A stretch of 64,000 nucleotides of DNA. Source: Gemmatimonas phototrophica (GTDB taxonomy: Bacteria; Gemmatimonadota; Gemmatimonadetes; Gemmatimonadales; Gemmatimonadaceae). Made by a program: the position numbers and the translations under genes. A model generated the notes under the pieces. It was not told the DNA's origin and ran no database searches. It saw only the letters and a list, made by a program, of their open reading frames with translations. The DNA lies in assembly GCF_000695095.2 (NCBI RefSeq), contig NZ_CP011454.1:434001-498000 (forward strand), written 5' to 3'. Of the stretch, positions 31,722 to 46,831 are shown one piece after another (the stretch's first letter is position 1; each line of letters starts with the position of its first letter).

Positions 31722-31724
31722 AAA

Positions 31725-31742
31725 GGCGGAAGCTATGCCGCC
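31725..31742 (-). promoter_or_regulatory. Conserved leader hairpin before kinase 7
   Basis: Exact copy of the 18-nt element before kinase 6, at the same distance (3 nt) from the ATG. The flanking bases ACTCATAA and GAGG are also shared, while the sequence beyond differs. Retention between two diverged genes suggests a role in translation or as a protein-binding site, though recent duplication could also explain it. Confidence 0.5.
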
Positions 31743-31851
31743 GAGGGACCTCGCGCGACGAGCTCCGCCGTCACCATGCTGACGTTTCGTTCACGCGCGA
31801 CGCACACGCCTTACGCTGGCGTCGTGTGTTGGCGAGCGCGACTTTTACCGC

Positions 31852-34404
31852 ATGCCCATCCCCGACCGTCTCGTTGCCGCCCTCGCCGACCGCTATCGCA
31901 TTGAGCGGGAGCTCGGGGCCGGCGGCATGGCCACCGTTTATCTCGCTGCGGACCTCAAGCACGAGCGGAAGGTGGCCATCAAGGTCCTCAAGCCCGAACT
32001 CGCGGCGGTGCTGGGCGCCGAGCGCTTCGTGCAGGAGATCAAGACGACGGCGGCGCTGAGTCATCCGCACATCCTGCCGCTGTTCGATTCCGGCGAGGCG
32101 GGCGGCTTCCTGTATTACGTGATGCCCTACATCCAGGGCGAGACGATCCGCGAGCGGCTGAACCGGGAGACGCAGCTCGGCGTGGACGAGGCGGTGCGCA
32201 TCACGCGCGAGATCGCCGATGCTCTGGACTACGCGCACCGGGCCGGGGTGATCCACCGGGACATCAAGCCCGAAAACATTCTGCTGCACGATGGCCGCCC
32301 GATGGTGATGGATTTCGGCATCGCGCTGGCGGTGAGCGCGGCGGCGGGCGGGCGCATGACGGAGACGGGGCTGAGTCTGGGCACGCCGCACTACATGAGC
32401 CCCGAGCAGGCCACAGCCGACAAAGCCATCACGGGGCGCAGCGACATCTACTCGCTGGCCAGCGTGTGTTACGAGATGCTGACGGGTGAGCCCCCGCACA
32501 TGGGGAATTCGGCGCAGCAGATCATCATGAAGATCATCGCCGAACCGGTGCAGCCGGCGACGGCGCTGCGCAAGGCGGTGCCGCCGCATGTCTCGGCGGC
32601 GCTGGGCCACGCGCTGGAAAAGCTCCCGGCCGATCGCTTCGACAGCGCGAAGGCCTTTGCCGAAGCGCTCGCCGATGTTCACTTCGCCGAAGGCGCCAGG
32701 GTCGTCGCCGCCACGCCGTTGAAGCGTCGCGGCGCCGTCCTCGCACTCGGCGCAACGTCGACCCTCCTCGCCTTGCTGGCACTCGCCGGGTGGCTGCGAA
32801 AGCCGCCAGCCGTGGAGCGCCCGGTGACGAAGTTCATCATCGATGCGCAGGCGATGGTAGAGGATGTCGACGTCTCGCCGGACGGAGGGTTCGTACTGTT
32901 CGGACTGCAGCAACTGGGGGTGATGCGGTATCGTGCCCTCGATCACGACACACTCGTGCCGCTGCCGTTTCAGGTCATACCGCCGAGGATCACGCGCGAT
33001 GGCCGGTCGCTGGTGGGCGTCACGATCATGGGCGATCTGATCACGGCGGGCTTGCCTGCCGGCGCACCGCAGGTGCTCGCGAGGCCTGGGGTTGGCGCTT
33101 CGGCGATCCCGGGGAATGACGGCTTTGTGTACCTTGGGCTGGCTGGCGGTGGACTGGGCCGGATTCCGGAGAGCGGCGGCGCCATCGATACCCTGATCGC
33201 CGACAGCCCATCCGACGCGCGGCACGAGCCGCTCGATGTGCTGCCGGATGGGCAGACCCTGCTCATTACGCGCTACCGGGGCTTCGAAGATTCCCTCGCG
33301 CTGTTCAACATCGCGAAGCGCGCGGCGACGCCGCTCTTTCCCGCCCATCGTGTGCAGTCCGCCCGCTATATGCCGCCGGGCTACCTTCTGTACAATGACG
33401 GGAACCAGCTGGTTGCGCGGCCTTTCAACGCGCGCACGCAGACACTCGGCGAGGGAACGATTCCCATCGCGAGCGGACCACAACGGCGCCAGCTGGCGTT
33501 CGGTGTTGGCGGAACGACGCTGGCCTATGCCACGAGAGGGGGGGGGACGGGCATGCTCGTCCTCTCTGATCGGCAGGGCAACCGGCGGGTGCTCCCCAAT
33601 CTTCCGGCCGGCGACTACAACTCGCCGAAAGTCTCCCCGGATGGACAACAGATCGCGGTGATGCACTTCGCACCGACAGGGGAGCGCGACCTGTCGGTGT
33701 ATCGCTTGCCCGCGGGCCCGCTCACCAAGGTCACGCACACGGGCGATGTCCTGCTGGAGGGCTGGATCGGCGGCGGTGAGCGCGTCGCATACACCCGCAC
33801 GGGAAAGGTCGGCGACGTATTCTGGCGCCGCGCCGATGGCTCGGGAGAGGAGCAACTCCTGCTGCACCGCGACCGGATCGGGTCCCCGACGTTCTTCTCC
33901 GATGGGCGGCAGGTACTGTACCGCGATCGGAACCAGCTGAAACTCGCCACGGTCGGTGCAGACGCCGAGACGGATCGGAGCGTACCCGGCATCCGGGGAG
34001 TGGAGCTGACCGTATCGCCGAACGGCCGCTGGCTTGCCTTCACCCAGCGCGATGCCGGCACCCAGCTGTACGTGCAGACACTCGCCGACTCCGGATGGCG
34101 GCAACAGGTGTCCCTGCGCAGCGCGCTCGATCCCCGCTGGTCACAGGACGGACGCTCGCTGTATTTCCTCGACGGCGCGAATCTGATGGAAGCGACGCTG
34201 TCGTTCGATGACGAGGTGCGGGTGAGCTCGCTGCGGACACTGCCGTTCTACGACCAGACGGGTGCCACCTGGGATGTGTTTCCCGATGGCAATCAGTTCG
34301 TGATGACGCGACAGACGGACGAGTCGGGGACGCGATCGGGTGAGGTCACCGTGATCGCCAACTTCGACGTGCTGCTCGCGCGCCTCGCGCGAATGCCCCG
34401 ATGA
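31852..34404 (+). CDS. Kinase 8: membrane Ser/Thr kinase with PD40/TolB beta-propeller
   Basis: The 850-residue product (ATG 31852, MPIPDRLVAALADRYRIER) has a kinase domain (LGAGGMATVYL, VAIKVLKPEL, HRDIKPENILL, DFGIALAV, MSPEQ), a membrane helix at about 296-315 and a beta-propeller region (DVSPDGGFVLFG, KVSPDGQQIAVMH, VSPNGRWLAFTQ, WSQDGRSLYFLD). The final stop overlaps the start of kinase 9 (ATGA). The first 100 codons are nearly identical to kinase 9 at the DNA level, while the propellers are strongly diverged. That suggests the same cytoplasmic signalling output with different external inputs; this last point is inference. Confidence 0.95.
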   Translation: MPIPDRLVAALADRYRIERELGAGGMATVYLAADLKHERKVAIKVLKPELAAVLGAERFVQEIKTTAALSHPHILPLFDSGEAGGFLYYVMPYIQGETIRERLNRETQLGVDEAVRITREIADALDYAHRAGVIHRDIKPENILLHDGRPMVMDFGIALAVSAAAGGRMTETGLSLGTPHYMSPEQATADKAITGRSDIYSLASVCYEMLTGEPPHMGNSAQQIIMKIIAEPVQPATALRKAVPPHVSAALGHALEKLPADRFDSAKAFAEALADVHFAEGARVVAATPLKRRGAVLALGATSTLLALLALAGWLRKPPAVERPVTKFIIDAQAMVEDVDVSPDGGFVLFGLQQLGVMRYRALDHDTLVPLPFQVIPPRITRDGRSLVGVTIMGDLITAGLPAGAPQVLARPGVGASAIPGNDGFVYLGLAGGGLGRIPESGGAIDTLIADSPSDARHEPLDVLPDGQTLLITRYRGFEDSLALFNIAKRAATPLFPAHRVQSARYMPPGYLLYNDGNQLVARPFNARTQTLGEGTIPIASGPQRRQLAFGVGGTTLAYATRGGGTGMLVLSDRQGNRRVLPNLPAGDYNSPKVSPDGQQIAVMHFAPTGERDLSVYRLPAGPLTKVTHTGDVLLEGWIGGGERVAYTRTGKVGDVFWRRADGSGEEQLLLHRDRIGSPTFFSDGRQVLYRDRNQLKLATVGADAETDRSVPGIRGVELTVSPNGRWLAFTQRDAGTQLYVQTLADSGWRQQVSLRSALDPRWSQDGRSLYFLDGANLMEATLSFDDEVRVSSLRTLPFYDQTGATWDVFPDGNQFVMTRQTDESGTRSGEVTVIANFDVLLARLARMPR
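31912..32009 (+). repeat. 98-nt tract shared almost exactly with kinase 9 (34464-34561)
   Basis: Codons for the glycine loop to subdomain III in kinase 8 match those in kinase 9 with one difference in 98 nt (T/C in the valine codon of MATVYL). Just outside the tract synonymous differences are frequent. The pattern fits recent gene conversion or recombination between the neighbours. Confidence 0.75.
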
Positions 34405-37022
34405 GCGCCGCCGCCGATCGCCTCGCCGCCGCCCTGGCCGACCGCTACCGCATCGAGCGTGAACTCGGGGCCGGCGGCATGGCCACCGTCTATCTCGCTG
34501 CGGACCTCAAGCACGAGCGGAAGGTGGCCATCAAGGTCCTCAAGCCCGAACTCGCGGCGGTACTGGGCGCCGAGCGGTTCGTGCAGGAAATCAAGACCAC
34601 GGCCGCGCTCTCGCATCCGCACATTTTGCCGCTCTTCGACAGCGGCGAGGCCGGCGGCTTTCTGTACTACGTCATGCCCTATATCCAGGGGGAGACGATT
34701 CGTGAGACGCTGAATCGCGAGACGCAGTTGGGGGTGGATGATGCCGTGCGCATCACGCGCGAAATTGCCGACGCGTTGGATTATGCGCATCGGGCCGGCG
34801 TGATTCACCGCGACATCAAGCCCGAAAACATCCTGCTGCACGACGGTCGTGCAATGGTGATGGACTTCGGGATCGCACTGGCCGTGAGCGCCGCGGCCGG
34901 CGGGCGCATGACGGAGACGGGATTGAGTCTCGGCACGCCGCACTACATGAGCCCCGAGCAGGCCACTGCGGAGAAAGAAATCTCCGGGCGCAGCGATGTG
35001 TACTCGCTGGCGAGTGTGTTGTACGAAATGCTGGCCGGTCAGCCGCCGCATCTGGGCGGCAGCGCGCAGCAGATCATCATGAAGATCATCACCGAGCCGG
35101 CGGCGCCGGTGACCGCCTACCGAAAGACCGTGCCGCCGTATGTGGCCGCCGCGGTGGGGAAAGCGCTGGAGAAACTGCCCGCGGATCGGTTTGCGAGCGC
35201 CAAGGAATTCGGTGCGGCCCTGAACGACCGCAGTTTCACCACGGCCATGACGGCCGCGTCTGCGTCGGGTAGGTCGCCGCAGCGCGACAAACGCTTCCTG
35301 ATCGCGTCGGTGGTGGCGGCCGTCGCCCTGATGGCCGCCGTGGCCGGCTGGTTGCGACCGCGCGCGACGCCGGTCGTCTCGCGGTTCAGCGTGGCGCTGA
35401 CGGAAGCGCCGATTGCCGAGGGAGGTTCGCCCGGCAGCCGGGCGACCCTGTCACCCGACGGGCGCACATTGGCGTGGGTGAGTGGCGAGGGCACGGACGC
35501 CCGCCTCTGGGTGCGGCCATTGGACCAACGGCGCGGCACGGCGCTCGCAGGGACAGAGGGGGCCGGTGATCCGTCTTTCTCCCCCGACGGCAAGCGCATC
35601 GCATTCACGTCCGGCACGACAAAACGCTCGCTGCGCGTCGTGCCCGTAGGAGGCGGTCCGGTCCTCGTGCTGACCGATTCCCTGGTGGGTCCGGCCGGGG
35701 TAAGCTGGGCCGACGATGGCTACATCTACTACGACGGCAATCTTCAGGGCGACGGCCTCGCGCGGATTCGCGAGACAGGCGGCAGTCCGGAAATTGCGAC
35801 GGTTCGCGACACCAGCCGGAAAGAGGTGGCACATTATCGGCCCTCGGCGTTGCCCGGTGGCCGCGGTGTGCTCTTCTTCGCGCTGGGTGTACGGTCGGTC
35901 GGTGTGCTCGATGCGAGAACGGGGAAGCACAAAATGATCACCCGCGCGGAGGCTGCACTCTACGTCGAGACCGGTCATCTGCTGACGGTCACCACGGATG
36001 GCTCCCTCCTCGCGACGCCGTTCGACCTCGAGCGCCTGGAGTTGCGTGGAGAGCCCATTCTGTTGGCGGGTGGGCTTCTCAAGCGTGGCAATACCATCGA
36101 TTTCGCCGTGGCGCGTGACGGGACGCTCCTGTACGCCGAGGGAGCGGATCAAACCGCAGCGAGCGAGTTGGTGTGGATCACGCGATCCGGTGTGGTGACC
36201 GCCGTGGATTCTTCGTGGCGTGGCACCTTTTTCAGCCCGGAGGTCTCGCCGGACGGGCGCTTCGTGGCCGTGGGGATGGGTGCTGCCAGCGGATCAACCG
36301 TGGTCGTCAAGCGACTCGATCGCGGTGCCGAGATCCGTGCGGCGCAGGGCACGTGGTCCACGTGGATGCCAGACAGTCGGAATCTGTTGATCTGGGGATC
36401 TGCACCGGGAGGAAGCAGCATCGGCATCGTGCCGGCGGATGGCAGCAAGCCACCGCAGTGGCTCGGTATCGATGGCCGCTTCCCGCGTGCCTCGCCCGAC
36501 GGGGCGTGGATTGTTTATACGACCCGACCGAACCGGGTGGTGGCGCGTCGGCTGACCGGCGATACAAGCCAAGTTGTCCTGGCGTCCGAACAAGGAACCA
36601 TCACGTTTGCTCCGGTGCTTTCACCCGACGGTCGTTGGTTGGCCTATGTCTCGCGGGACAATGGCGAACAGCTGTTCGTGCGACCGTTTCCCGACGCCGG
36701 CTCCGCCAGGTACGCCGTCGCCAGCACCAGCCGCATCAGCCAGCTCCCGTTCTGGTCGCCGAATGGGCGTGAGCTGTTCTGGGCTGGCGCCGACGGCAAG
36801 CTGATGCGCGTGTCCCTGGCGCCGGGCGCGGCGTTCGAGCCCAGCGTGGCGGAGCCGGTGTTCACCACGCCGCCAATGCTGTTTTCGGGCGGCGGGGTCA
36901 CGATGGCGCCCGACGGCCGGTTCCTGGCGGTGCGAACGGCGGGTGGTGAAGCGGACAGGCCGGACGAATTGGTGCTGGTACAGGGGTTTTTTGAGGAGCT
37001 GAAGCGGGTGCGTCCGCAGTAG
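34401..37022 (+). CDS. Kinase 9: membrane Ser/Thr kinase with PD40/TolB beta-propeller
   Basis: The 873-residue product starts at ATG 34401 inside the kinase 8 stop, so translation is coupled. Kinase domain (LGAGGMATVYL, VAIKVLKPEL, HRDIKPENILL, DFGIALAV, MSPEQ), membrane helix at about 299-318, then a PD40 propeller (TLSPDGRTLAWVS, FSPDGKRIAFTS, EVSPDGRFVAVGM, LSPDGRWLAYVS, WSPNGRELFWAG). It is the last gene before the sulfur-oxidation cluster; 172 nt of non-coding DNA follow, holding a hairpin and the putative ArsR site. Confidence 0.95.
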   Translation: MSAAADRLAAALADRYRIERELGAGGMATVYLAADLKHERKVAIKVLKPELAAVLGAERFVQEIKTTAALSHPHILPLFDSGEAGGFLYYVMPYIQGETIRETLNRETQLGVDDAVRITREIADALDYAHRAGVIHRDIKPENILLHDGRAMVMDFGIALAVSAAAGGRMTETGLSLGTPHYMSPEQATAEKEISGRSDVYSLASVLYEMLAGQPPHLGGSAQQIIMKIITEPAAPVTAYRKTVPPYVAAAVGKALEKLPADRFASAKEFGAALNDRSFTTAMTAASASGRSPQRDKRFLIASVVAAVALMAAVAGWLRPRATPVVSRFSVALTEAPIAEGGSPGSRATLSPDGRTLAWVSGEGTDARLWVRPLDQRRGTALAGTEGAGDPSFSPDGKRIAFTSGTTKRSLRVVPVGGGPVLVLTDSLVGPAGVSWADDGYIYYDGNLQGDGLARIRETGGSPEIATVRDTSRKEVAHYRPSALPGGRGVLFFALGVRSVGVLDARTGKHKMITRAEAALYVETGHLLTVTTDGSLLATPFDLERLELRGEPILLAGGLLKRGNTIDFAVARDGTLLYAEGADQTAASELVWITRSGVVTAVDSSWRGTFFSPEVSPDGRFVAVGMGAASGSTVVVKRLDRGAEIRAAQGTWSTWMPDSRNLLIWGSAPGGSSIGIVPADGSKPPQWLGIDGRFPRASPDGAWIVYTTRPNRVVARRLTGDTSQVVLASEQGTITFAPVLSPDGRWLAYVSRDNGEQLFVRPFPDAGSARYAVASTSRISQLPFWSPNGRELFWAGADGKLMRVSLAPGAAFEPSVAEPVFTTPPMLFSGGGVTMAPDGRFLAVRTAGGEADRPDELVLVQGFFEELKRVRPQ
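34464..34561 (+). repeat. 98-nt tract shared almost exactly with kinase 8 (31912-32009)
   Basis: Second copy of the near-identical segment described at 31912. The next codons already differ at several synonymous positions (for example CGC/CGG, GAG/GAA, ACG/ACC), marking a sharp right border. Confidence 0.75.
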
Positions 37023-37090: not shown

Positions 37091-37110
37091 CTTGCCCAAG
37101 GTTGGGCGAG
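37091..37110. terminator. Inverted repeat after kinase 9
   Basis: CTTGCCCAA-GG-TTGGGCGAG is a 9-bp inverted repeat with one G-T type mismatch, located 68 nt after kinase 9 and 12 nt before the ArsR-like site. It could end the kinase 8-9 message or bind a regulator. There is no U-run after it. Confidence 0.35.
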
Positions 37111-37121
37111 CATATTACTAT

Positions 37122-37138
37122 ATTCTAGTATAGAGAAT
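37122..37138. promoter_or_regulatory. Putative ArsR-family operator before the sulfur-oxidation operon
   Basis: ATTCT-N7-AGAAT lies within a CTATA-TTCTAG-TATAG repeat, in an AT-rich island of otherwise GC-rich DNA 56 nt before the cytochrome gene. The string TATTCT followed by TATAGAGAAT recurs, with one extra base, at 43685-43703 next to the arsR-like gene. Sulfide- or persulfide-sensing ArsR repressors (SqrR/BigR type) are known to bind ATTC...GAAT dyads; the match to that site is approximate. Confidence 0.6.
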
Positions 37139-37194
37139 CTCCCGCCTTTCTCCTCCGCTCCCTCCCCGCCTCACTCCCCCGAGCAGGAGTCCAT

Positions 37195-38157
37195 ATGCGC
37201 GTTCCATCCCTGTCACTGTTTGCCCTCACGACGTTGATCGTGGGCTGCGGCGAGGCCTCGGCGCCTGCCGATGCCAACAAGACCGACACCAAGGCTGACG
37301 CCAAGGCGGTGGTCTTTACCGAGTCGGCCTGGAAGCCGCCGCTTGAAGCCGATATCCCCGCGGATTCAATGGGGGCTTCCATCAAGCGTGGTCTCTATCT
37401 CCTGCGCTTCACGCCGGAGAGCCTCCCGAACTACGCGACCTCGAACCTCCGCTGTACCAGCTGCCATCAGCAAGATGGCCTCAAGCTTGAGGCCGCGCCG
37501 CTGACCGGTTCCCACGCGCGGTTTCCCAAGTACATGCCGCGCTCGGGCACGGTCATCGCGCTTGCTGACCGTGTGAACTACTGCTTCACCCGCTCGCTCG
37601 CCGGCAATGCCATCCCCGCTGAGAGCCGCGAGATGACCGACATCCTCGCGTACCTCGCCTTTATCTCCAAGGATATCCCAGTGGGCGTCAAGATCGCCGG
37701 GGCCGACGGGATTCTGTCGATGAAGGACACGCTCGTGGGTGATGTTGCCCGGGGTGAGGCGCTTTTCACCGCCAAGACCTGTGTGACCTGCCACGGCGCC
37801 AATGGTGAGGGGAACGGTCCCATTCCTGCCCTGTGGGGGGCCAAGTCGTACTCGGTGGGTGCCTCCATGACGCGCCACGAGCGGGCGGCCAGCTTCATCA
37901 TGCACAACATGCCGCAAACGGCACCGGGATCGCTCACCCCGCAGGAAGCGTTCGACCTCTCGGCGTACATCAATTCCCATCCGCGCCCAGACTCGCCCGG
38001 CAAGGAGAACGACTGGCCAATGGGCGGCGCCCCCGCCGACGTGCCGTACAACACGGCGGGGCACAAAGCCTTCAATCCGCCGCCGCTCCTCCCGCGCGCC
38101 AATCCGCGCGGCGCGCTGGTGCCGAATCCGCCGGTTGTCGGCCGCGGTGGTCGCTGA
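37195..38157 (+). CDS. tsdA: Dihaem c-type cytochrome, thiosulfate dehydrogenase (TsdA)-like
   Basis: TsdA couples two thiosulfates to tetrathionate in the periplasm. The 320-residue product is a predicted lipoprotein (LTTLIVGC, cysteine at residue 18). Haem motifs are C87TSCH91 and C196VTCH200. C130 in RVNYCFTRSLAGNAIP occupies the place of the unusual cysteine axial ligand that defines TsdA, 39 residues after H91. The flanks also fit: GSHARFPKYMPRSG, SREMTDILAYLAFI and FIMHNMPQTAPGSLTPQEAFD. First gene of the operon with soxC, soxD-like and yeeE/yedE. A role as an electron-transfer subunit for SoxC instead is possible. Confidence 0.82.
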   Translation: MRVPSLSLFALTTLIVGCGEASAPADANKTDTKADAKAVVFTESAWKPPLEADIPADSMGASIKRGLYLLRFTPESLPNYATSNLRCTSCHQQDGLKLEAAPLTGSHARFPKYMPRSGTVIALADRVNYCFTRSLAGNAIPAESREMTDILAYLAFISKDIPVGVKIAGADGILSMKDTLVGDVARGEALFTAKTCVTCHGANGEGNGPIPALWGAKSYSVGASMTRHERAASFIMHNMPQTAPGSLTPQEAFDLSAYINSHPRPDSPGKENDWPMGGAPADVPYNTAGHKAFNPPPLLPRANPRGALVPNPPVVGRGGR

Positions 38158-38165
38158 CGGTTCCC

Positions 38166-39452
38166 ATGATCGATACGCCCGATTCCACTGACGCCGCTGA
38201 GGCGGCGTCGCCGGCGCTCACGCGCCGCGATCTCCTCGCTGGCGCGGTGGGTACCCTTGGGGGGGCCATGCTCGCCGGACTTCCCGCAGTCCTCGGTGCG
38301 CAGCAAGCCGTGGCGCCCGCGGCGCCTGCCGTACCCACCGACGCCACCAAGCTGCAGGGTGCGCCCACCTCGCCGCTCGGTGAGCGAAGCCCCTTTGAGA
38401 CGCCCAAGCGCGGTCCCACCGGCGCCACTACGGGCTCGTCGCTTACGCCGCTGCAGGATCTCACCGGCAACATCACGCCGAGTGACCTGCACTTTGAGCG
38501 CCATCACGCCGGTATCCCCGCACTCGATCCCGAGCGTCATACACTCACCATTCACGGGCTCGTCGAGCGGCCGCTCACCTTTTCGGTCGCCGACATCAAG
38601 CGCTTCCCGCAGGTGGTGCGCACGCACTTCGTCGAATGCTCCGGCAACGGGCGCGCCGCCTACCGTGCGCCCAAGCCGGAGATGACGGCGCAGCAGGTCG
38701 CCGGCATGATCAGCACGACCGAGTTCACCGGCGTGACACTCGCCACGCTCTTTCGCGAGTGCGGCGTGAAGCCCGAGGCCAAGTGGTTCCTCGCCGAAGG
38801 GGGAGATGCCTGTGTGATGACGCGCTCGGTGCCCATCGAAAAGGCCTGGGACGACGCACTCATCGTCTGGGCACAGAATGGTGAACCCCTGCGCCCCGCA
38901 CAGGGCTATCCGCTCCGCCTCGTGCTGCCGGGATGGGAAGGGAACATCAACATCAAGTGGGTGCGCCGCCTCGAACTCGGTACACAACCGTGGATGACGC
39001 GGTGGGAAACGTCGAAGTACACGGACCCGCTGCCGAACAAGACCGCGCGTCGCTTCACCTTTGAGTGCGACGTGAAGTCCATCATCACCAGTCCCACCGT
39101 TTCCGACCGCGTATCGGCGAAGGGGTGGCACACCGTCTCCGGTCTCGCCTGGAGTGGCCGCGGCCGCGTCCAACGGGTGGAGGTGAGCGTCGATGGTGGC
39201 ACGACCTGGACCGACGCGCAGCTGCTTGGCGAGCCGCAGTCGAAGTCGACGGTACGCTTTCAGCACATGTGGGAGTTCTCAGGGCGCGAGAGCGTGTTGC
39301 TCAGCCGAGCTACTGACGATGCCGGCTACACGCAGCCTACGCGCGCCGCCGTGATCACCGCGCGCGGCCTCGGCACTGACTACCACTTCAATCAGATCGT
39401 GGGGTGGAAGGTGGTTGGAGACGGCACCGTCACGTTCCACGGGGAGACCTGA
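38166..39452 (+). CDS. soxC: Sulfane/sulfite dehydrogenase molybdopterin subunit SoxC
   Basis: The 428-residue molybdoenzyme starts at ATG 38166, 8 nt after the cytochrome gene; the frame is open further upstream only as overlap. It has a twin-arginine signal (T-R20-R21-DLLAG), consistent with export after cofactor insertion. The sulfite-oxidase-type Moco domain carries the cysteine ligand C158 in HFVECSGNGR, followed by LLPGW-like LVLPGWEGNINIKWVRRLE and a C-terminal dimerisation domain (GLAWSGRGRVQRVEVSVDGG). The blocks ITPSDLHFERHHAGIP and DIKRFP point to SoxC rather than SorA. SoxCD oxidises SoxY-bound sulfane sulfur; no soxYZ is in the window, so its substrate here is uncertain. Confidence 0.92.
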   Translation: MIDTPDSTDAAEAASPALTRRDLLAGAVGTLGGAMLAGLPAVLGAQQAVAPAAPAVPTDATKLQGAPTSPLGERSPFETPKRGPTGATTGSSLTPLQDLTGNITPSDLHFERHHAGIPALDPERHTLTIHGLVERPLTFSVADIKRFPQVVRTHFVECSGNGRAAYRAPKPEMTAQQVAGMISTTEFTGVTLATLFRECGVKPEAKWFLAEGGDACVMTRSVPIEKAWDDALIVWAQNGEPLRPAQGYPLRLVLPGWEGNINIKWVRRLELGTQPWMTRWETSKYTDPLPNKTARRFTFECDVKSIITSPTVSDRVSAKGWHTVSGLAWSGRGRVQRVEVSVDGGTTWTDAQLLGEPQSKSTVRFQHMWEFSGRESVLLSRATDDAGYTQPTRAAVITARGLGTDYHFNQIVGWKVVGDGTVTFHGET

Positions 39453-39454
39453 GT

Positions 39455-40030
39455 ATGCGCTCGCTTGTGATCTTGGGACTCGTCGCGGGTCTCGCCGCCT
39501 GTGGCTCGAAACCGGCAGACAATGCGCCCGCGCAAGGCACGCGCTACGGCCTCGGCACGCCGGCAAGCGACTCGCTCATCCGTGCGATGGACATCGACAT
39601 CGGCCCCGATGGCGCTGGTCTCCCGGTAGGACAGGGGACCGTGGCCGACGGCGGCACCCTGTATCAGGCGCAGTGCGCCATGTGCCACGGTGCCAAGGGC
39701 GAAGGGATGGAGCCTGCCTTTCCCCGCCTGCTCGGCCGCGTTCCCGCTGCCGAGGACTTCACCTTCTCGAGCGATCCCAAGCTGCCGCACACCATCGGCA
39801 ACTACTGGTCGCACGCGACGACGCTGTTTGACTACATCCGCCGGGCGATGCCGCACACCAAGCCCGGCTCACTCTCCGACGACCAGGTGTATGCCTTGAC
39901 GGCCTACCTGCTGGCCATGGATGACGTGATTGCGGATGACGCTACTCTCGATGCGGCCGCGCTGCGTGCCGTAAAGATGCCATATGCTGACCGGTTCGTC
40001 GCGGACGACCGCGCCCCCGGCAAGCCGTAG
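39455..40030 (+). CDS. Monohaem cytochrome c, short lipoprotein SoxD-like subunit
   Basis: The 191-residue predicted lipoprotein (GLAAC16) has a single haem motif C74AMCH78 and a likely methionine ligand in RRAMPHTKPGSL. The preceding block DIDIGPDGAGLPVGQGTVADGG, which I read in two halves as DIDIGPDGAGLPVG and QGTVADGG, and the position right after soxC (ATG 2 nt after the stop) are typical of SoxD. Usual SoxD proteins are longer, often 330-380 residues, so this is a minimal membrane-anchored form. It should accept electrons from SoxC. A SorB-type sulfite dehydrogenase subunit is the alternative. Confidence 0.8.
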   Translation: MRSLVILGLVAGLAACGSKPADNAPAQGTRYGLGTPASDSLIRAMDIDIGPDGAGLPVGQGTVADGGTLYQAQCAMCHGAKGEGMEPAFPRLLGRVPAAEDFTFSSDPKLPHTIGNYWSHATTLFDYIRRAMPHTKPGSLSDDQVYALTAYLLAMDDVIADDATLDAAALRAVKMPYADRFVADDRAPGKP

Positions 40031-40056
40031 TCCTTCCTCCAACGTTGGAGCATTTC

Positions 40057-40614
40057 ATGTCGCTTTCCGCTTCTCCCACGCTCGCGCCGGACAATCCGGT
40101 GCCCATGCTCGAGGCGCCCAGGACGCCCTGGGTGTTCTACGGGATTCTCTTCGGGATTCTCGGCGCCGCTTCCATCATCGTGTGGGGACCCATCGGCGTC
40201 TCTGGCACCTATCCGCGGTTCATCGGTGCGATCACGGAACTCTTCAATCCGGCGTACGCGGAGTCCAACCCCTACCTGAAGAAGATGGGGTCGCTGATGA
40301 AGCCCGAGACCTTCATCGTGCTCGGCCTGCTGATCGGCGGGTTCCTCGGGGCCCGCGCCAACAAGGAAAAGACGCCGGCGTGCGAGATGGCGCATCCTGG
40401 AGAAACCACCAAGGCCAAGCGTTATCGTGATGCCTTCATCGGCGGGTTCCTCATCGTCTTTGGCGCCCGTATCGCTGGCGGGTGCACCAGCGGTCACATC
40501 ATCTCCGGCATTACCCAGTTGTCAGTGAGCGGGTTCATCTTCGCCATCGGTGTCTTCGCCTCCGGCATCATGTCAGCGAAGATGCTCAACAGCCGCCGCG
40601 CGGCAGGAGCCTGA
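40057..40614 (+). CDS. YeeE/YedE family transporter, first half
   Basis: A 185-residue membrane protein with about four helices and the family signature ARIAGGCTSGHIISG. YeeE/YedE proteins such as TsuA import thiosulfate, using conserved cysteines on the path. This gene encodes one half of what is often a single protein; the other half follows 2 nt after the stop. ATG 40057, preceded by TTGGAG, is preferred to the TTG at 40045. A role in moving sulfur compounds for the Sox/Tsd enzymes fits the operon. Confidence 0.9.
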   Translation: MSLSASPTLAPDNPVPMLEAPRTPWVFYGILFGILGAASIIVWGPIGVSGTYPRFIGAITELFNPAYAESNPYLKKMGSLMKPETFIVLGLLIGGFLGARANKEKTPACEMAHPGETTKAKRYRDAFIGGFLIVFGARIAGGCTSGHIISGITQLSVSGFIFAIGVFASGIMSAKMLNSRRAAGA

Positions 40615-40616
40615 TC

Positions 40617-41156
40617 ATGCTCGTTTCGTTCCTTGCCATCCTGATCGGCGTGGCCATGGGCTTCTTTATCCAGCGCGTGAAGGCCTCGAGCCCGGCGATG
40701 ATCGTAAAGAACCTCCGGCTCGAGAACCTGTCGGTCATCAAGTTCATGGCTCTCACCATGGCTGTCGGCATGGTGCTGGTGTACGGCATGTCGCTCGTGG
40801 CGCCGCAGGTCCTGCACTTCGACGTGAAGCCCACTTACGTGCTCGGGGTGCTGCTCGGTGGCCTGGTGTTTGGCGTCGGCTTCGGTGTCGGCGGTTATTG
40901 CCCCGGTACCAGCGTCGTTGGCATCGGTGAAGGGCGCAAGGACGCCGTCGTCGCGGTCGTTGGCGGCGTGGTCGGCGCACTCGTCTTCACGCTCGTCTAC
41001 ACGACGCTCATCGATCCGATCGTGAAAGTGGCGAACCTCGGCAAGATCACTCTCGCCGACGTGACCGGCGTCAATCCTTTCGTGATGGCCCTCATCGTGG
41101 CCGCCATCTTCGCGGCCGTGATCAAGATCCTCCCCACCGATGTGCGGAAGGCCTGA
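40617..41156 (+). CDS. YeeE/YedE family transporter, second half
   Basis: The 179-residue membrane protein has about five helices (MLVSFLAILIGVAMGFFIQ at the front) and carries the second signature, VGGYCPGTSVVGIGEGR, with the conserved cysteine. It pairs with the preceding half to complete one transporter; split pairs of this type (YeeE/YedE plus DUF6691-like) are common next to sulfur-oxidation genes. Last gene of the operon; a strong terminator lies 27 nt downstream. Confidence 0.9.
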   Translation: MLVSFLAILIGVAMGFFIQRVKASSPAMIVKNLRLENLSVIKFMALTMAVGMVLVYGMSLVAPQVLHFDVKPTYVLGVLLGGLVFGVGFGVGGYCPGTSVVGIGEGRKDAVVAVVGGVVGALVFTLVYTTLIDPIVKVANLGKITLADVTGVNPFVMALIVAAIFAAVIKILPTDVRKA

Positions 41157-41182
41157 ACGCGACGCGTGACGTGGCGGACAGC

Positions 41183-41220
41183 ACAGAGCCCCCGGCGGAA
41201 CTATCCGCCGGGGGCTCTGT
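41183..41220. terminator. Strong bidirectional terminator
   Basis: A perfect 17-bp stem (ACAGAGCCCCCGGCGGA and its complement) with the loop ACTA, between two convergent operons. It is the strongest hairpin noticed in the window. The flanks are not U-rich, but position and stability support termination for both strands. Confidence 0.8.
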
Positions 41221-41232
41221 GCATCCGTCCGC

Positions 41233-42552
41233 TTACTTGATCGGGCGGAAGGTGAACCCCAGCAGAAGCGAGGTTTCAGAGAGCGAGTTGCTCACCAACG
41301 TGCCGGGGATGGCCTGCGGCCGAAACATCGCGCCCGTGATGGTATTCTCGAGCGCCTTGTAGGCGGCGACGTTCAGCTCCACGCCCTTCGCGATGGCCAC
41401 TCCGACTCCGCCCGTGATGTGGTGTTGCACAACCGCCGGCGCGGCGATGTTGAACATCGACTGCTCGTCGGGAATCGGGTTGCCCGAGTAGTGGTAGCCA
41501 CCACGCAGCGTCACCTTGTTGCTGGCCTTGTACTGGGCGCCCGCGGCAACCACGGTGATGTCCTGCCAGCCGAACCCTTGCACGGAGCCGTCGCCCGCAT
41601 AGCCCTTGGCTTCGAAGCCTTCCGTACTGCCGTAGGTCACGTACTTGGCGTCGAGCCCCATCTGCAGGCGCTCGGTGGGCGCAACCGCGAGTCCCACGCC
41701 ATAGATCGCCGGGACGTCCATGCGGAACGAGACGGTCCGCGCGGTTCCGAAGTTCGGGAGGTTGGGATTTGCGTGCGTCATCTGGAACTTGAAGTCAGTG
41801 AAGATCTGCGGCGATGTGTACGCGAGTCCCATGGTGACCTTGGGCGATACGACGTACTGCAGCCCCACCTGAAAGCCGAAGCCGAACACGGCGTCCGCGG
41901 CGGCCGCCGACGGATAGAAGGAGCGATCATCCTGGGTTCCTGGCCGGTTGTCCGGACCTGGATCGAAGTCCGGCGCCGCGATCGGCATCGGATCCACGGC
42001 CAGCGATTGCCAGTCGATGTTGGCGGCGACACCCAGGCTCAGCTTCTCTCCCGCCTTCCACGCGAGCGCAGGCGAAATCTTGAGCAACTGGAAGTTGGAG
42101 TAGACCTGCCCGAAGCCGTTTGGCCGCGGCATCAGGATGGGGTTGGACGGATCGGCCGCGTAGTTCACGCCGAAGCCGCCGATGCCGAGCCCCGAGAGTC
42201 CGATGACCAGCCCGTTCTCGAGGCGCGTGCTGAACCCGAAGGCCGGAATGGGACTCCAGTCGGAGTCGCTGGTGGTACTCCCGGACATCGTACCGAACGT
42301 GGACGATACGGTGCGATCGGGCTTCAGAAGTTCGAACCCCATCTCGAGATTCGTGCCGTCGAAAGAGGCGAGGCCGGCCGGGTTGGAATAGAAGGCGCCC
42401 AGCAGGCTGGCGTTGGAGGCAATGGCAACGCCGCCGAGCGCGGAATTCACGGCGCCGACGCCGTGCAGGAGGTGTCCATCGGTCGCGTGTGCGGTGCCGG
42501 GCACACTGATCAAAGAAAAGGCCGCGAAGGCCAAAGACCAGGAGTATCGCAT
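41233..42552 (-). CDS. FadL/OMPP1/TodX-family outer-membrane transporter
   Basis: The 439-residue protein starts at ATG 42552 behind a GAGG site; the open frame upstream of it overlaps the next gene. Signal peptide (1-23, ending AHA), then the FadL N-terminal hatch motif (GVGAVNSALGGVAIASNASL and FYSNPAGLASFDG), alternating beta-strands and a C-terminal strand ending in LLLGFTFRPIK. These porins take hydrophobic molecules across the outer membrane. It is the second gene of the minus-strand unit that starts at the ArsR-like site, so it may import or export a hydrophobic sulfur compound; that is inference. Confidence 0.9.
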   Translation of the reverse strand: MRYSWSLAFAAFSLISVPGTAHATDGHLLHGVGAVNSALGGVAIASNASLLGAFYSNPAGLASFDGTNLEMGFELLKPDRTVSSTFGTMSGSTTSDSDWSPIPAFGFSTRLENGLVIGLSGLGIGGFGVNYAADPSNPILMPRPNGFGQVYSNFQLLKISPALAWKAGEKLSLGVAANIDWQSLAVDPMPIAAPDFDPGPDNRPGTQDDRSFYPSAAAADAVFGFGFQVGLQYVVSPKVTMGLAYTSPQIFTDFKFQMTHANPNLPNFGTARTVSFRMDVPAIYGVGLAVAPTERLQMGLDAKYVTYGSTEGFEAKGYAGDGSVQGFGWQDITVVAAGAQYKASNKVTLRGGYHYSGNPIPDEQSMFNIAAPAVVQHHITGGVGVAIAKGVELNVAAYKALENTITGAMFRPQAIPGTLVSNSLSETSLLLGFTFRPIK

Positions 42553-42607
42553 CGTGGGGACCTCGAGAAGAGTTGGAGAAGGTGGTCGGGCAGGGCTACG
42601 GGGAGCA

Positions 42608-43684
42608 TCAAGGGGTCGGCGGGAGCCGGCCGATGGCGCGCTCAAGTGCGCCACTGAGAGCGGGATCGGGCGGGAAGGCGCGTGCAAACGCGTCGCGCAG
42701 TGCACCGCTGTCTGATTCCGCGGGTATGGAGACGGCGTTGTCCGCCTCGGCAAGGCGCGCCAACCAGAAGCGACGATAGGCGCCGGCGCGCTCCGGGAGA
42801 CGCCGGTCGAGCAGCGCGGCCCCACAGCGAACCGCGGCGAGGCTCGCACGTCGGGCGGCTGTGGGATCCCCCACGCGAAGGCCAGCCTCGCGCGCGGCCC
42901 GTGAGACGGCCGGGAAGCAGGACTCGCGGGTGAAGGCGAGCAGCGGTGCATCGGTGACACTGTCGGACGCGAAGCTCCCGACCGCCGCGAGGTTGTCCTT
43001 CCGGTCGGCGGTGCCGGCGAAGAGCCGCCCCTCGGCGCCAAGGGCGGGCGCGACGATGAGACGTCCCTCGTCGAGTCGTTCCGCCACCAGCCAGGGCGCA
43101 AGCGCCGGGAGGTAGCTAGAGTCGAGCATCGCCTGCCACGCAGCCGTGCGCGCTGCTCCAGGGGGAGTCGGTCGCACGGCGCCGAGTGCATCAGCGAGCG
43201 TCGGCAAATAGGCCCGGCGCGATGTCGGAGAGAGCACCTGTCTCAGGGCGCCCACGAGCAGCGTGGCGCGCGGTACCGGTGCCTCATCGCTGGCGGCGAC
43301 GCGCAGCGCGTCGCCCAGCGCCAGGCGATCGGCGGACGGATAGTACAGGGGGAGGAAGTGGAGGATTTCCCACTCGCGCGACCCGGCGAGGGCACGGGAA
43401 AGTTCGCGTTCGGCAGCCCCGGGGGCGGCGCCGCCCGACGTGAAGGCGAACGCGCCGACTCCGGCGAGGCGCAGGTCGGCCAGCAGGGCAAACCACGCCT
43501 GCGCCGCCTCGGAGGATACGATGCGCCAGCGCACTGCGGCGGCGGGCGACTTGGCTGCCGTGGTCGGGGACACCCTCCCGGTGCCGCCCTGTGCCCAGAG
43601 CGGTGAGCTCACGGCCAGCCCGACGGCCAAGGTAACGGCGGCCCGCGCTCCCGGGACCCGAATCTTCGAGGATAGCATATGCAT
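42608..43684 (-). CDS. Exported protein of unknown function
   Basis: I do not recognise a family. The 358-residue product has a signal peptide (core VTLAVGLAVSSPLWA, about residues 16-31) and no further membrane segment. The mature part is Ala/Arg/Leu-rich and mostly helical in appearance, with two cysteines (ESCFPAV and VRCGAALL). ATG 43684 and ATG 43678 are both possible starts; the first lies inside the inverted repeat at 43677-43696, so transcription probably begins very close to it. Followed after 55 nt by the FadL-type gene, so a periplasmic partner of that porin is one possibility. Confidence 0.7.
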   Translation of the reverse strand: MHMLSSKIRVPGARAAVTLAVGLAVSSPLWAQGGTGRVSPTTAAKSPAAAVRWRIVSSEAAQAWFALLADLRLAGVGAFAFTSGGAAPGAAERELSRALAGSREWEILHFLPLYYPSADRLALGDALRVAASDEAPVPRATLLVGALRQVLSPTSRRAYLPTLADALGAVRPTPPGAARTAAWQAMLDSSYLPALAPWLVAERLDEGRLIVAPALGAEGRLFAGTADRKDNLAAVGSFASDSVTDAPLLAFTRESCFPAVSRAAREAGLRVGDPTAARRASLAAVRCGAALLDRRLPERAGAYRRFWLARLAEADNAVSIPAESDSGALRDAFARAFPPDPALSGALERAIGRLPPTP

Positions 43685-43703
43685 TATTCTGCATATAGAG
43701 AAT
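43677..43703. promoter_or_regulatory. Putative ArsR-family operator at the start of the porin operon
   Basis: Two overlapping dyads: a perfect ATATGCA-TTATTC-TGCATAT (43677-43696) and ATTCT-N8-AGAAT (43686-43703). The second, with the string ATAGAGAAT, repeats the element at 37122-37138 in front of tsdA. The site covers the likely -10 region and start codon of the 358-residue gene on the minus strand and lies 117 nt before the arsR-like ATG on the plus strand, so it could repress both. Confidence 0.62.
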
Positions 43704-43820
43704 TGATACGCTTTGCAATCCTCTTTTTTGACTGGGCGCGTGGGTATTCCCCCGACCGGGCCCCGCCAAGTCGCCGGTGCGGTCGCACGCAGCTCGGGTA
43801 CTGAATTACCTTACACGCAC

Positions 43821-44183
43821 ATGGTTTCCAGCGTACGCCCAATTTCCAAGCGCGAGCCAACCGCCGCGCTGCTCGCCATGGTAGCGGGCCGTTTCCGGGC
43901 GCTCGCCGAACCGGCGCGCCTGGGGATCCTGCATGAGCTGGAGGCGGGCCCGCTCACCGTCACCGAGCTGGTGCAGCGCACGGGGCTCGGGCAGGGCAAC
44001 CTCTCCAAGCATCTCCAGCAGTTGCATGCGACGGGCTTCGTCAGCCGCACGCGCAAGGGACTCTTCGTGTACTACGGGCTGGCCGACGACAACGTGCTCG
44101 CCCTCTGCGAGATCATGTGTGGCCGGCTCGAGCACGACATCGCCGCCGCCCGCGCGACGGTCAGCACCCCTCGCGACGAGTAG
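43821..44183 (+). CDS. ArsR-family transcriptional regulator, possibly sulfur-responsive
   Basis: A 120-residue winged-helix repressor: RFRALAEPARLGILHELEAG, then the recognition helix TVTELVQRTGLGQGNLSKHL, the wing SRTRKGLFVYYGL and a C-terminal helix with C96 and C100 (LCEIMCGRLE). No ArsR metal site ELCVCDL is present. Paired cysteines in related proteins (SqrR, BigR, YgaV) sense persulfide, though there they lie in different helices. The start is ATG 43821; an upstream TTG at 43713 would add 36 residues unlike the family. It sits next to the putative operator and is the likely regulator of the sulfur genes; that is inference. Confidence 0.88.
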   Translation: MVSSVRPISKREPTAALLAMVAGRFRALAEPARLGILHELEAGPLTVTELVQRTGLGQGNLSKHLQQLHATGFVSRTRKGLFVYYGLADDNVLALCEIMCGRLEHDIAAARATVSTPRDE

Positions 44184-44210: not shown

Positions 44211-46664
44211 TCAACGACCGGAATCCTGGCTCGCCTTTACCCGTGCGCGGCGAAGCACATCCTGCGCCCGTGGGTCACGCCGCAGCGCCTCGTATCGGCG
44301 CATATGCAACAAATCCAGTACGCGCGAGCTGTTGGAACTGACCGCGCGGTCCCACCACTGCACCGCCCGCTCGATGTCGCCAAGGGCAAAGAACACTTCG
44401 GCGATACCATCCTCGCGCACGTATTCGCGCACCGATCGTGCGATCGCAGCGTTCAGTTCGACTCTGGCGCTGACCGTATCGCCCGCGGCGAGGAAGGCCG
44501 CGGCGAGACCCGTAAGGTTCCCGCCGGAGCGGGCTTCGCGTTCGGCCGGAGTAACGCTCCGAAGGCGGTTGAGCGACATGCGACGGGCACTGTCTGCACG
44601 TCCCGCCTGCTGCAGTTGTCGAATCGCGCAGGTCGCCGATGGCGAACCCTCCAACTGCGCGATCAACAGGCACCGCTGTTCGCGCTGGGCCGGTGATAGT
44701 CGAGCGAAATGCTCCTGGACGAGCGACTGGCGCAACAGCGCGATGGCGCCGGGATTTGACCGTATACCGCGCTCAAGGACGGCAAAGGCGGAATCGCCAG
44801 ACTCCCCGAACTCACTCGACAGCAGCCGACTGTACGATCTGGCGGCCTGGACGTTCGTCGAGTCAATCGCCAACGCCCGTTCGAATGCACGACGAGCGCT
44901 GACCGGATCCCAGTCGTACCACATGTGCAGCTCACCGGCCTGCGCGTGTGCGTCGGCCGATGACGGGTCGAGCGCGAGAGCACGCTCGACCGCGGGACGC
45001 ATGCGCGGGAGGACCTCGAGTGGCGAGACGAAATCGTCCGCCAGAGTTGACAACGCGTGGGCCAGCGCTGCCCAGCCACCGGCATAGAGGGAATCCTTCT
45101 GAATCGCCAGCTCCGCCAGCGACACGGCCTGCCGTAGTGACGCGGCAGTGAATTGATCGGTCAAAAAGTACGACCGTTGCACCAGATCCAACGCCTCGGC
45201 GCTGCGCGTGCCGCGCGCCTCGACCTTCGCCTTCACCTCAGGTGAGAGGGTGAGCCTGAGCGCGCCGGCAATGGCGTTCACCAGCTTGTCCTGCAGGGCA
45301 AACTGATCCTGATCGCTTTCTTCGAACGTCTCTGACCACTGCACGGACTCGTCGGTCGGATCGATTAGCGACGCCGTCACGCGGAGCCGATTTCCCGATC
45401 GCATCAGCGAGGCGGTGAGCAGCGAGGACACATCGAGTGTCTTGCCCGCTTCGCCCAGCGGTTTGCCCTGCATGGTCTTGGACGACGAATACGCACGCAC
45501 CACCAGCCCGGGTATCTTGCTCAGGCGCGTGGTGAGTTCGCCGGACAGGCCGTCGGCGAGGTAGGCATGGGCGGTGTCGCTGCCCATTTCGGTGGGGAGC
45601 ACCGCGATGCTGCGCGGCGCGCTTCCGGCAGCGTCCACCACCTTCGTCGATGCGAACCACGCTGCTCCCGCCAGCGCCACGAGCGCGGCCGCGGCCGCAA
45701 TCCAGCGCCCGGCACGCGAGCGCGCCGGCGTGGTTGCCGTGGACGCGGCGGTGGTGGCGATTTCGCTCGACACCGCTGCCACCGCTGTGGTGGGCGCCGA
45801 ACCACCACTCGGCGTGGTGATCTGATCCAGCCCGTGCACCAGATCCAGCGCTGTTTGCGGCCGGTCGGCGGCGCGCTTCTCGAGACAGCGCATGACCAGA
45901 TTGCCGAGCGCCGGCGGAATGGTCTGCCGCCGGCGCGTGATGAATTCCGGCGTCTCGGTTACATGCGCCGCGAGCAATCCCTGCGGCGTGCGCCCGCTGA
46001 ACGGCGGTTGGCCGGTAAGCAGCTCATACGCCAACACGCCGAAGGCGTAGATATCCGCGCGGTGATCGACCGCCGGGTCGGCGCTGGCCTGCTCCGGCGA
46101 CATGTAGGCCGGCGTGCCGAGGGCGACGCCCATGGAGGTGGTGTTGCCGGCTTCGCTGTTGCTGGAGGCCGAGATGGCCTTGGCCACGCCAAAATCGGTG
46201 ATCATCGCGCTGCCGCCCGACAGCAGCACGTTGTCGGGTTTGATGTCACGATGCACAATGCCCCGATCGTGCGCGTAGGCGAGTGCTGAGGCGATCTCGC
46301 GCAACAGGCGCATGGCTTCGCTGAGCGGCAGCTCCCCCTGACGGGCGATGCGGGCGCGCAGCGACTCGCCCTCCACCAGCGGCATGGTGAAGTAGGGCAG
46401 TCCGCCGGCATCACCGGCGGTGAGCAACGGCACGACATGCGGATTCTGCAGCCGCGCGGCCAGCGCGATCTCGCGCTTGAAGCGTTCAAGCGACACCTGC
46501 CCGACCATCTCCTCGGGCAGCACTTTCACCACCACCCGTCGGTCCAGCGCGACTTCCGTGGCGACAAACACGCGCGACATCCCGCCACCACCGAGTTCAT
46601 GCTCGAGGGTATAGGCGGTGCCAAGGGCGAGCTGTAGCTGTTCGCGAAGTGGGAAAGCGGTCAC
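44211..46664 (-). CDS. Kinase 10: membrane Ser/Thr kinase with TolB-N-like domain and TPRs
   Basis: The 817-residue product from GTG 46664 has a kinase domain (LGGGGMSRVF, VVVKVLPEE, HRDIKPDNVLL, DFGVAKA, MSPEQ), a membrane helix at about 320-338, a TolB-N-like domain (RSIAVLPTEMGSD ... QFALQDKLVNAIAG) and TPR-like repeats to the C-terminus (for example ALALDPSSADAHAQAGEL). It belongs to the same group as kinases 1-3 and is the closest match to the remnant at 341-520. Divergent from kinase 11, with 167 nt between starts. Confidence 0.95.
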   Translation of the reverse strand: MTAFPLREQLQLALGTAYTLEHELGGGGMSRVFVATEVALDRRVVVKVLPEEMVGQVSLERFKREIALAARLQNPHVVPLLTAGDAGGLPYFTMPLVEGESLRARIARQGELPLSEAMRLLREIASALAYAHDRGIVHRDIKPDNVLLSGGSAMITDFGVAKAISASSNSEAGNTTSMGVALGTPAYMSPEQASADPAVDHRADIYAFGVLAYELLTGQPPFSGRTPQGLLAAHVTETPEFITRRRQTIPPALGNLVMRCLEKRAADRPQTALDLVHGLDQITTPSGGSAPTTAVAAVSSEIATTAASTATTPARSRAGRWIAAAAALVALAGAAWFASTKVVDAAGSAPRSIAVLPTEMGSDTAHAYLADGLSGELTTRLSKIPGLVVRAYSSSKTMQGKPLGEAGKTLDVSSLLTASLMRSGNRLRVTASLIDPTDESVQWSETFEESDQDQFALQDKLVNAIAGALRLTLSPEVKAKVEARGTRSAEALDLVQRSYFLTDQFTAASLRQAVSLAELAIQKDSLYAGGWAALAHALSTLADDFVSPLEVLPRMRPAVERALALDPSSADAHAQAGELHMWYDWDPVSARRAFERALAIDSTNVQAARSYSRLLSSEFGESGDSAFAVLERGIRSNPGAIALLRQSLVQEHFARLSPAQREQRCLLIAQLEGSPSATCAIRQLQQAGRADSARRMSLNRLRSVTPAEREARSGGNLTGLAAAFLAAGDTVSARVELNAAIARSVREYVREDGIAEVFFALGDIERAVQWWDRAVSSNSSRVLDLLHMRRYEALRRDPRAQDVLRRARVKASQDSGR

Positions 46665-46694
46665 GTATGCGGGTGTTGGGATCGAAGTGTGGAG

Positions 46695-46700
46695 TATAAT
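46695..46700 (+). promoter_or_regulatory. Overlapping -10 elements between kinases 10 and 11
   Basis: AGTATAAT at 46693-46700 reads as a perfect TATAAT on the plus strand (for kinase 11) and as TATACT on the minus strand (for kinase 10). No well-spaced -35 is evident (TTGGGA lies only 13 nt upstream on the plus strand). The two promoters would compete for the same DNA. Confidence 0.4.
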
Positions 46701-46831
46701 GAGGCTTGGGTCGGTGGTTGCGCGATGTTGATGTACGGGGCTTCACGTTTTGGCGTGCCGGCCACATTGCGCCGGTACCTTCGTCACGCAACGTTACCGA
46801 GACATGCCCCGGCCAACGTCCTCCTGATCGC

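What the first reader, a model, noticed from the sequence alone, without database searches (positions are those of the whole stretch)
37110..43703. Shared operator-like element defines a sulfur regulon with an ArsR protein
TATTCT...TATAGAGAAT occurs in front of tsdA (37121-37138) and at the head of the unknown-protein/fadL unit next to arsR (43685-43703), both in AT-rich islands at promoter positions. ATTC...GAAT dyads are known targets of sulfide-responsive ArsR repressors. The ArsR protein has C96 and C100 in one helix, a different cysteine layout from SqrR/BigR.
Basis: partly seen in the sequence, partly recalled or inferred. Interest (0 to 1): 0.65.

Follow-up and report, generated by a model that had tools for sequence, protein, structure and literature searches.

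The report
ArsR operator controlling sulfur-oxidation genes
In a bacterial lineage of soils and fresh waters (Gemmatimonadota), a small repressor protein with an unusual pair of cysteines very probably switches thiosulfate-oxidation genes through a conserved 20-base DNA site over their promoter; related sites precede sulfite-export, rhodanese and efflux genes, so an uncharted sulfur-sensing circuit becomes testable.

Summary
TATTCT-N(2-6)-TATAGAGAAT occurs only at these two places in the 4.72-Mb genome. The ATTC...GAAT dyad is not the conserved feature: its spacing differs (N9 and N10), neither fits SqrR's ATTC-N8-GAAT, and relatives lack it.

The conserved unit is a 20-bp operator shifted 8-9 bp, ATATTACYRTAT-N4-RTAT. 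It lies at 37112-37131 over the -10/start of tsdA, in register with a palindrome at 43677-43696 over the unknown/fadL promoter. A matrix trained on 19 relatives scores site 1 at 26.6 bits; the best unrelated site in the window scores 9.7. A genome-wide model finds only site 1.

The cluster tsdA-soxC-cytc-yeeE-yeeE with arsR nearby is conserved in about 25 Gemmatimonadaceae genomes, with the operator before tsdA. The same operator precedes rhodanese-TauE, tolC-MFP-RND, DUF302 or arsR itself beside ArsR paralogs that keep the recognition helix and C96/C100.

Best reading: a sulfur-linked ArsR repressor using an operator and cysteine layout distinct from SqrR/BigR/SoxR. Binding and effector are inferred. 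Site 2 is weaker: conserved in two relatives, but poorly scored by the site-1 matrix.

The parts
37092..37097 (+). -35-like TTGCCC of the tsdA promoter
   Evidence: TTG at -19 or -20 relative to the operator start in 16 of 20 tsdA promoters (window included) and at -22 in two more; 18 bp before the -10-like TACTAT at 37116-37121
37112..37131 (+). operator 1, ATATTACTATATTCTAGTAT, overlapping the -10/start region of tsdA
   Evidence: 26.6 bits out of sample against 9.7 for the best unrelated site in the window; only hit of model R1 in the whole genome, E 1e-3; aligned with 19 relatives
37195..38157 (+). tsdA, diheme thiosulfate dehydrogenase homolog
   Evidence: PF21342 and Cytochrom_C; PDB 4wqc thiosulfate dehydrogenase E 5e-46, heme-ligand Cys region aligned
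38166..39452 (+). soxC-type sulfite dehydrogenase (molybdopterin)
   Evidence: TIGR04555 487 bits, above cut-off 420
39455..40030 (+). c-type cytochrome (electron acceptor of SoxC/TsdA, inferred)
   Evidence: PF13442/PF00034
40057..40614 (+). YeeE/YedE half-transporter 1 (PmpA-like)
   Evidence: PF04143 E 2e-20
40617..41156 (+). YeeE/YedE half-transporter 2 (PmpB-like)
   Evidence: PF04143 E 2e-14
41233..42552 (-). FadL/TodX-type outer-membrane channel
   Evidence: PF03349 E 3e-28
42608..43684 (-). unknown, probably secreted protein upstream of fadL
   Evidence: no Pfam or NCBIfam match; orthologs in L034, L035, L040, L044, L045, L047, L048, L057
43677..43696 (-). operator 2, ATATGCAGAATAATGCATAT on the minus strand (near-perfect palindrome), overlapping -10 and the start codon of the unknown gene
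   Evidence: 17/20 identical in L034 and L035 (1/300 and 3/300 shuffles reach this); one of 7 ATAT-N12-ATAT in the genome; the same intergenic region holds an operator ranking 2nd to 4th of about 19 kb in five g29 genomes
43713..43718 (-). -35-like TTGCAA of the unknown/fadL unit, 17 bp before TATGCA (43690-43695)
   Evidence: sequence
43803..43822 (+). possible weak operator at the arsR promoter, GAATTACCTTACACGCACAT
   Evidence: third-ranked matrix hit in the window, 8.9 bits; NNATTACCTTATGTGCATGA at the same place in L040, L044, L045; may only be a -10 box
43821..44183 (+). arsR, 120-aa winged-helix repressor with C96-x3-C100
   Evidence: HTH_5 E 2e-11; HTH_metalloreg 76 bits; C96/C100 invariant in the homologs aligned; both in helix 92-114 of the AF2 model

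Best explanation
The ArsR protein at 43821-44183 is a dimeric winged-helix repressor that binds a 20-bp operator of the type ATATTACYRTAT-N4-RTAT (symmetric core ATAT-nnCn-ATAT-nGnn-ATAT). Operator 1 (37112-37131) covers the -10 and start region of the tsdA-soxC-cytc-yeeE-yeeE operon and operator 2 (43677-43696) that of the unknown/fadL unit, so binding excludes RNA polymerase. A reduced sulfur species (thiosulfate-derived sulfane sulfur, polysulfide or sulfite) is proposed to modify the C96-x3-C100 pair in the last helix, release the DNA and switch on thiosulfate/sulfite oxidation and sulfur transport. Shown by sequence comparison: the operator, its promoter position, its conserved linkage to this ArsR clade, the invariance of the cysteines and the recurring sulfur targets. 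Inferred: binding by this ArsR, repression rather than activation, the chemical signal, and the cysteines as sensor.
For: The tsdA cluster with arsR as last or neighbouring gene is kept in about 25 Gemmatimonadaceae genomes (20 with tsdA on the contig), with the operator before tsdA. A matrix from 19 relatives gives site 1 26.6 bits against 9.7 for the next unrelated site in 64 kb. Model R1 finds only site 1 in 4.72 Mb. In the family, five tsdA promoters and one rhodanese-TauE promoter outside the training set are among its best hits. The tsdA-trained matrix finds sites of at least 18 bits in 14 of 65 ArsR-paralog loci against 0 of 65 reversed controls, nearly all at promoters of tauE/rhodanese/arsR, tolC-MFP-RND or arsR. 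In 30 genomes of the genus the general model hits only site 1 and four other places; two of these were inspected and head tolC-MFP-RND operons, and a third lies about 7 kb from an arsR on the same contig. Recognition helix GxGQxNxSKHL and C96/C100 are conserved across paralogs. A -35-like TTG lies at a fixed distance before the operator. Targets match those of known sulfane-sulfur ArsR repressors: YeeE/PmpAB, TauE, rhodanese, RND (PMC12423496).
Against: No binding or expression data. Operator 1's left half overlaps the -10 box and operator 2 overlaps both a -10 box and the start codon, so part of the conservation could be promoter or start-codon constraint. Operator 2 scores only 1.6 bits with the general matrix; its link rests on the palindrome, two relatives and the orthologous position. 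L057 lacks a recognisable site there. Many tolC-RND paralog loci show no strong site within the fetched stretch. C96/C100 are invariant also in paralogs next to RND pumps, so they do not prove a sulfur signal.
Confidence: 0.66

Rival explanations
1. The conserved element is only a core promoter (TTGC -35, TATTAC/TACTRT -10) shared by sulfur genes, not a repressor site; ArsR acts elsewhere.
For: -35-like TTG at fixed distance and a -10-like hexamer inside the element; operator 2 also overlaps a -10 and a start codon.
Against: The downstream half (positions 12-20) is conserved beyond the -10 and palindromic in many copies (e.g. GAGTATATGACCATATAGGCATATACTC, L112); the genome-wide models hit almost only genes near this ArsR clade, not promoters in general.
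Confidence: 0.15
2. The ArsR binds these operators but senses a metal, metalloid or electrophile with C96/C100 rather than a sulfur species.
For: The ArsR family includes many metal sensors; C-x3-C on one helix face could bind thiophilic metals; several paralogs sit beside RND efflux operons; the general metalloregulator model is matched above cut-off.
Against: Neighbouring targets are TsdA, SoxC, YeeE, TauE, rhodanese (one YgaP-like), DUF302; no other cysteine and, read by eye, no His/Asp set of the helix-5 zinc site; no metal-sensor equivalog cut-off met.
Confidence: 0.2
3. Operator 1 belongs to the ArsR regulon but operator 2 is a different feature (leaderless promoter with a CATATG start, or another regulator's palindrome), so the unknown/fadL unit is not co-regulated.
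For: Its central sequence differs and it scores 1.6 bits with the general matrix.
Against: In register with operator 1 over 30 bp (19 identities); conserved palindrome in two relatives; five other genomes carry a canonical operator in the same intergenic region.
Confidence: 0.3
4. The sites are SqrR/BigR-type ATTC-N8-GAAT operators.
For: ATTC and GAAT words are present at both sites.
Against: Spacings are N9 and N10; the words are absent at orthologous promoters; the ArsR is not a BigR/SqrR member.
Confidence: 0.03

Closest known systems
SqrR / BigR / SoxR / sHdrR / YgaV sulfane-sulfur-responsive ArsR repressors
   Same: ArsR fold; site over the promoter as for YgaV at ygaVP; target classes YeeE/PmpAB, sox-type genes, TauE, rhodanese, RND pumps (PMC12423496, PMC9774250)
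   Different: lacks the two conserved cysteines (C50/C116 of sHdrR) and has C96-x3-C100 in one helix; operator ATATTACYRTAT-N4-RTAT instead of ATTC-N8-GAAT; BigR model 36.7 bits against cut-off 155
TsoR (NCBIfam NF045707, ArsR/SmtB type)
   Same: ArsR/SmtB protein, 45 bits
   Different: far below cut-off 115; no paper found in the library
NmtR/SmtB/CzrA metal sensors
   Same: best structure matches by sequence
   Different: no matching helix-5 His/Asp metal ligands by eye; sulfur-gene context
TTHA1953, CsoR-family regulator of sulfur oxidation in Thermus (PMC10318464)
   Same: transcriptional regulator of a sulfur-oxidation pathway (title and abstract only)
   Different: unrelated protein family

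Membership tests
SqrR/BigR/SoxR sulfane-sulfur ArsR repressors | two conserved cysteines at the positions of sHdrR C50 and C116 | tested here: not met
   only C96 and C100, both in helix 92-114, in P0001; requirement from PMC12423496
SqrR/BigR/SoxR sulfane-sulfur ArsR repressors | operator ATTC-N8-GAAT (SqrR, also at ygaVP) | tested here: not met
   N9 and N10 here; not conserved in relatives
SqrR/BigR/SoxR sulfane-sulfur ArsR repressors | NCBIfam BigR equivalog score | tested here: not met
   36.7 bits, cut-off 155
SqrR/BigR/SoxR sulfane-sulfur ArsR repressors | linked to sulfur oxidation/transport genes | tested here: met
   tsdA-soxC-cytc-yeeE-yeeE; in relatives TauE, rhodanese
SqrR/BigR/SoxR sulfane-sulfur ArsR repressors | release of DNA on polysulfide/persulfide | not testable with these tools
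   needs gel shifts
ArsR/SmtB family | ArsR-type winged helix-turn-helix | tested here: met
   PF01022 44 bits above 22; NF033788 76 above 55
ArsR/SmtB metal sensors | known metal-site ligands (Cys in helix 3, or Asp/His set in helix 5) | tested here: inconclusive
   no Cys outside 96/100; His/Asp set not seen by reading the sequence; C96/C100 could still form an undescribed site
TsdA thiosulfate dehydrogenase | SoxA/TsdA domain, two CxxCH hemes, Cys heme ligand | tested here: met
   PF21342; alignment to 4wqc keeps the cysteine of the CF-RSL-G stretch
SoxC sulfite dehydrogenase | TIGR04555 cut-off | tested here: met
   487.4 against 420

The most novel reading that the evidence does not exclude
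A separate lineage of ArsR repressors, widespread in Gemmatimonadota and possibly beyond, senses reactive sulfur through an intrahelical C-x3-C pair (intra- or inter-subunit polysulfide bridge) and controls thiosulfate oxidation, sulfite export, rhodanese and RND operons through its own ATAT-nnCn-ATAT-nGnn-ATAT operator, having acquired the SqrR/BigR target set independently.
Probability: 0.4. Interest if true: 0.75.

Novelty: new variant of a known kind. Interest (0 to 1): 0.58.

Why it matters
Regulation of sulfur oxidation is known mainly from Proteobacteria, where the characterised ArsR repressors share one two-cysteine design. A 2025 study noted that many ArsR proteins beside sulfur genes lack those cysteines and may work differently (PMC12423496). 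Here is such a clade with a defined operator, defined targets and an alternative cysteine pair, in a phylum with few cultured members; all parts can be tested with purified protein and short DNA probes. The operator matrix also gives a way to map sulfur regulons in uncultured genomes.

Tried and rejected
SqrR-type ATTC/GAAT dyad: rejected on spacing and non-conservation. Scoring site 2 with the tsdA-trained and general matrices: it does not stand out (1.6 bits, rank 17 in the window), so its case was built on orthologous position and palindrome instead. Models R1 and R2 in the own genome at E up to 10 gave only site 1, so the only further member found in this genome is the tolC-RND site seen by pattern and matrix. 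The reversed-sequence control is inflated because reversed palindromes still score, so only the cut of 18 bits is used. First coordinates for the Pfam scans were wrong and were redone. No paper on TsoR or on C-x3-C ArsR sulfur sensors was found in the held library.

Full report
Observation. The two words are exactly where stated and occur nowhere else in the genome. Aligned without a gap, the two 30-mers match at both ends (AGCATAT and TATAGAGAAT) with different middles, which points to a 20-bp unit ATA-N14-TAT rather than ATTC-N-GAAT.

Comparison with relatives. The ArsR protein was searched in 179 genomes of the family. The closest homologs lie in a conserved cluster tsdA-soxC-cytc-yeeE-yeeE-arsR, in some genomes with the fadL and unknown genes inserted on the other strand as in the window. 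Upstream of every tsdA examined stands ATATTACYRTATCGGMGTAY or a variant of it. A matrix from the 19 relatives, tested on the window, gives 26.6 bits at 37112-37131 and at most 9.7 at any unrelated site. The sequence-only model R1 returns only that site in the whole genome. In 177 family genomes its best hits are tsdA promoters, then rhodanese-TauE and tolC promoters; of 30 fetched hit loci only two (L096, L100) have none of these genes at hand. In 395 genomes of the phylum, hits at E of 0.02 or better are all in this family except one.

The operator is a property of an ArsR clade. Several weak R1 hits turned out to be near-perfect palindromes of the same design heading tolC-MFP-RND, rhodanese-TauE, DUF302 or arsR itself. 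In 65 ArsR-paralog loci from GTDB genomes, the tsdA-trained matrix finds 14 with a site of at least 18 bits and none in reversed sequence. The own genome has such a site before a tolC-MFP-RND operon close to a paralogous arsR (3250839-3250858). The paralogs share the DNA-recognition helix and both cysteines. One such locus is in a contig labelled Acidobacteria (L183).

Promoter geometry. A -35-like TTG lies 19 or 20 bp upstream of the operator start in 16 of 20 tsdA promoters and at 22 in two more, which puts a -10 inside the operator's left half and the start near its right half: a classic place for a repressor. The same holds for operator 2 on the minus strand (TTGCAA-N17-TATGCA), where the operator runs into the start codon.

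Site 2. The palindrome at 43677-43696 is kept 17/20 in two relatives (1 and 3 of 300 shuffles reach this), and five other genomes have an operator-like site in the orthologous region ranking 2nd to 4th in about 19 kb. But it scores poorly with the site-1 matrix, and promoter plus start codon could explain part of its conservation. Co-regulation of the unknown/fadL unit is therefore likely, not established.

Protein and mechanism. The ArsR has only C96 and C100, in the last helix of the predicted monomer (mean pLDDT 80, 76 over residues 91-100). SqrR-type repressors use two cysteines at other positions (C50 and C116 in H. denitrificans SoxR/sHdrR; PMC10451225, PMC12423496). A C-x3-C pair on one helix face could form a polysulfide bridge or bind a thiophilic metal; the gene context favours sulfur (inference). 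Operon products are a TsdA homolog (PDB 4wqc E 5e-46), SoxC, a cytochrome and two YeeE-type half transporters: a thiosulfate/sulfite oxidation unit with sulfur uptake.

Verdict. Observation partly confirmed and re-registered; interpretation partly supported. It is a new variant of the ArsR sulfur-repressor kind, not a member of the SqrR/BigR/SoxR family as defined by its cysteines and operator.

Noticed in passing
G000:C1:3250839-3250858 (L071:2840-2859): ATATTACTAATTACGTATAT directly before a tolC-MFP-RND operon, with a C-x3-C ArsR paralog about 6.5 kb away: a second site of the same design in this genome.
   Followed up: partly
37092-44183: Among 30 genomes of the genus only this one has an ArsR homolog above about 60% identity and the tsdA operator; nearest relatives are in other genera, so the cluster may be horizontally acquired or lost elsewhere.
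   Followed up: partly
29097-37022 and 44211-49528: The sulfur cluster sits between runs of Ser/Thr kinase-like genes (five large ORFs), as if inserted into a kinase array.
   Followed up: no
43676-43684: The unknown gene's start codon (CATATG) lies inside operator 2 close behind the -10, suggesting a leaderless transcript; the same in L034 and L035.
   Followed up: partly
42608-43684: Probably secreted protein of unknown family (no Pfam/NCBIfam match), found beside arsR in eight other genomes, in seven of them with fadL: a candidate sulfur-linked partner of the channel.
   Followed up: no
L183:3714-3733: Operator ATATTACTATATGGTTATAT before tauE...rhodanese-arsR in a contig labelled Acidobacteria; either the system extends beyond Gemmatimonadota or the bin is contaminated.
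   Followed up: no
L066:10257-10276: Operator between divergent arsR and a YgaP-like rhodanese gene, the same gene partners as E. coli ygaV-ygaP.
   Followed up: partly
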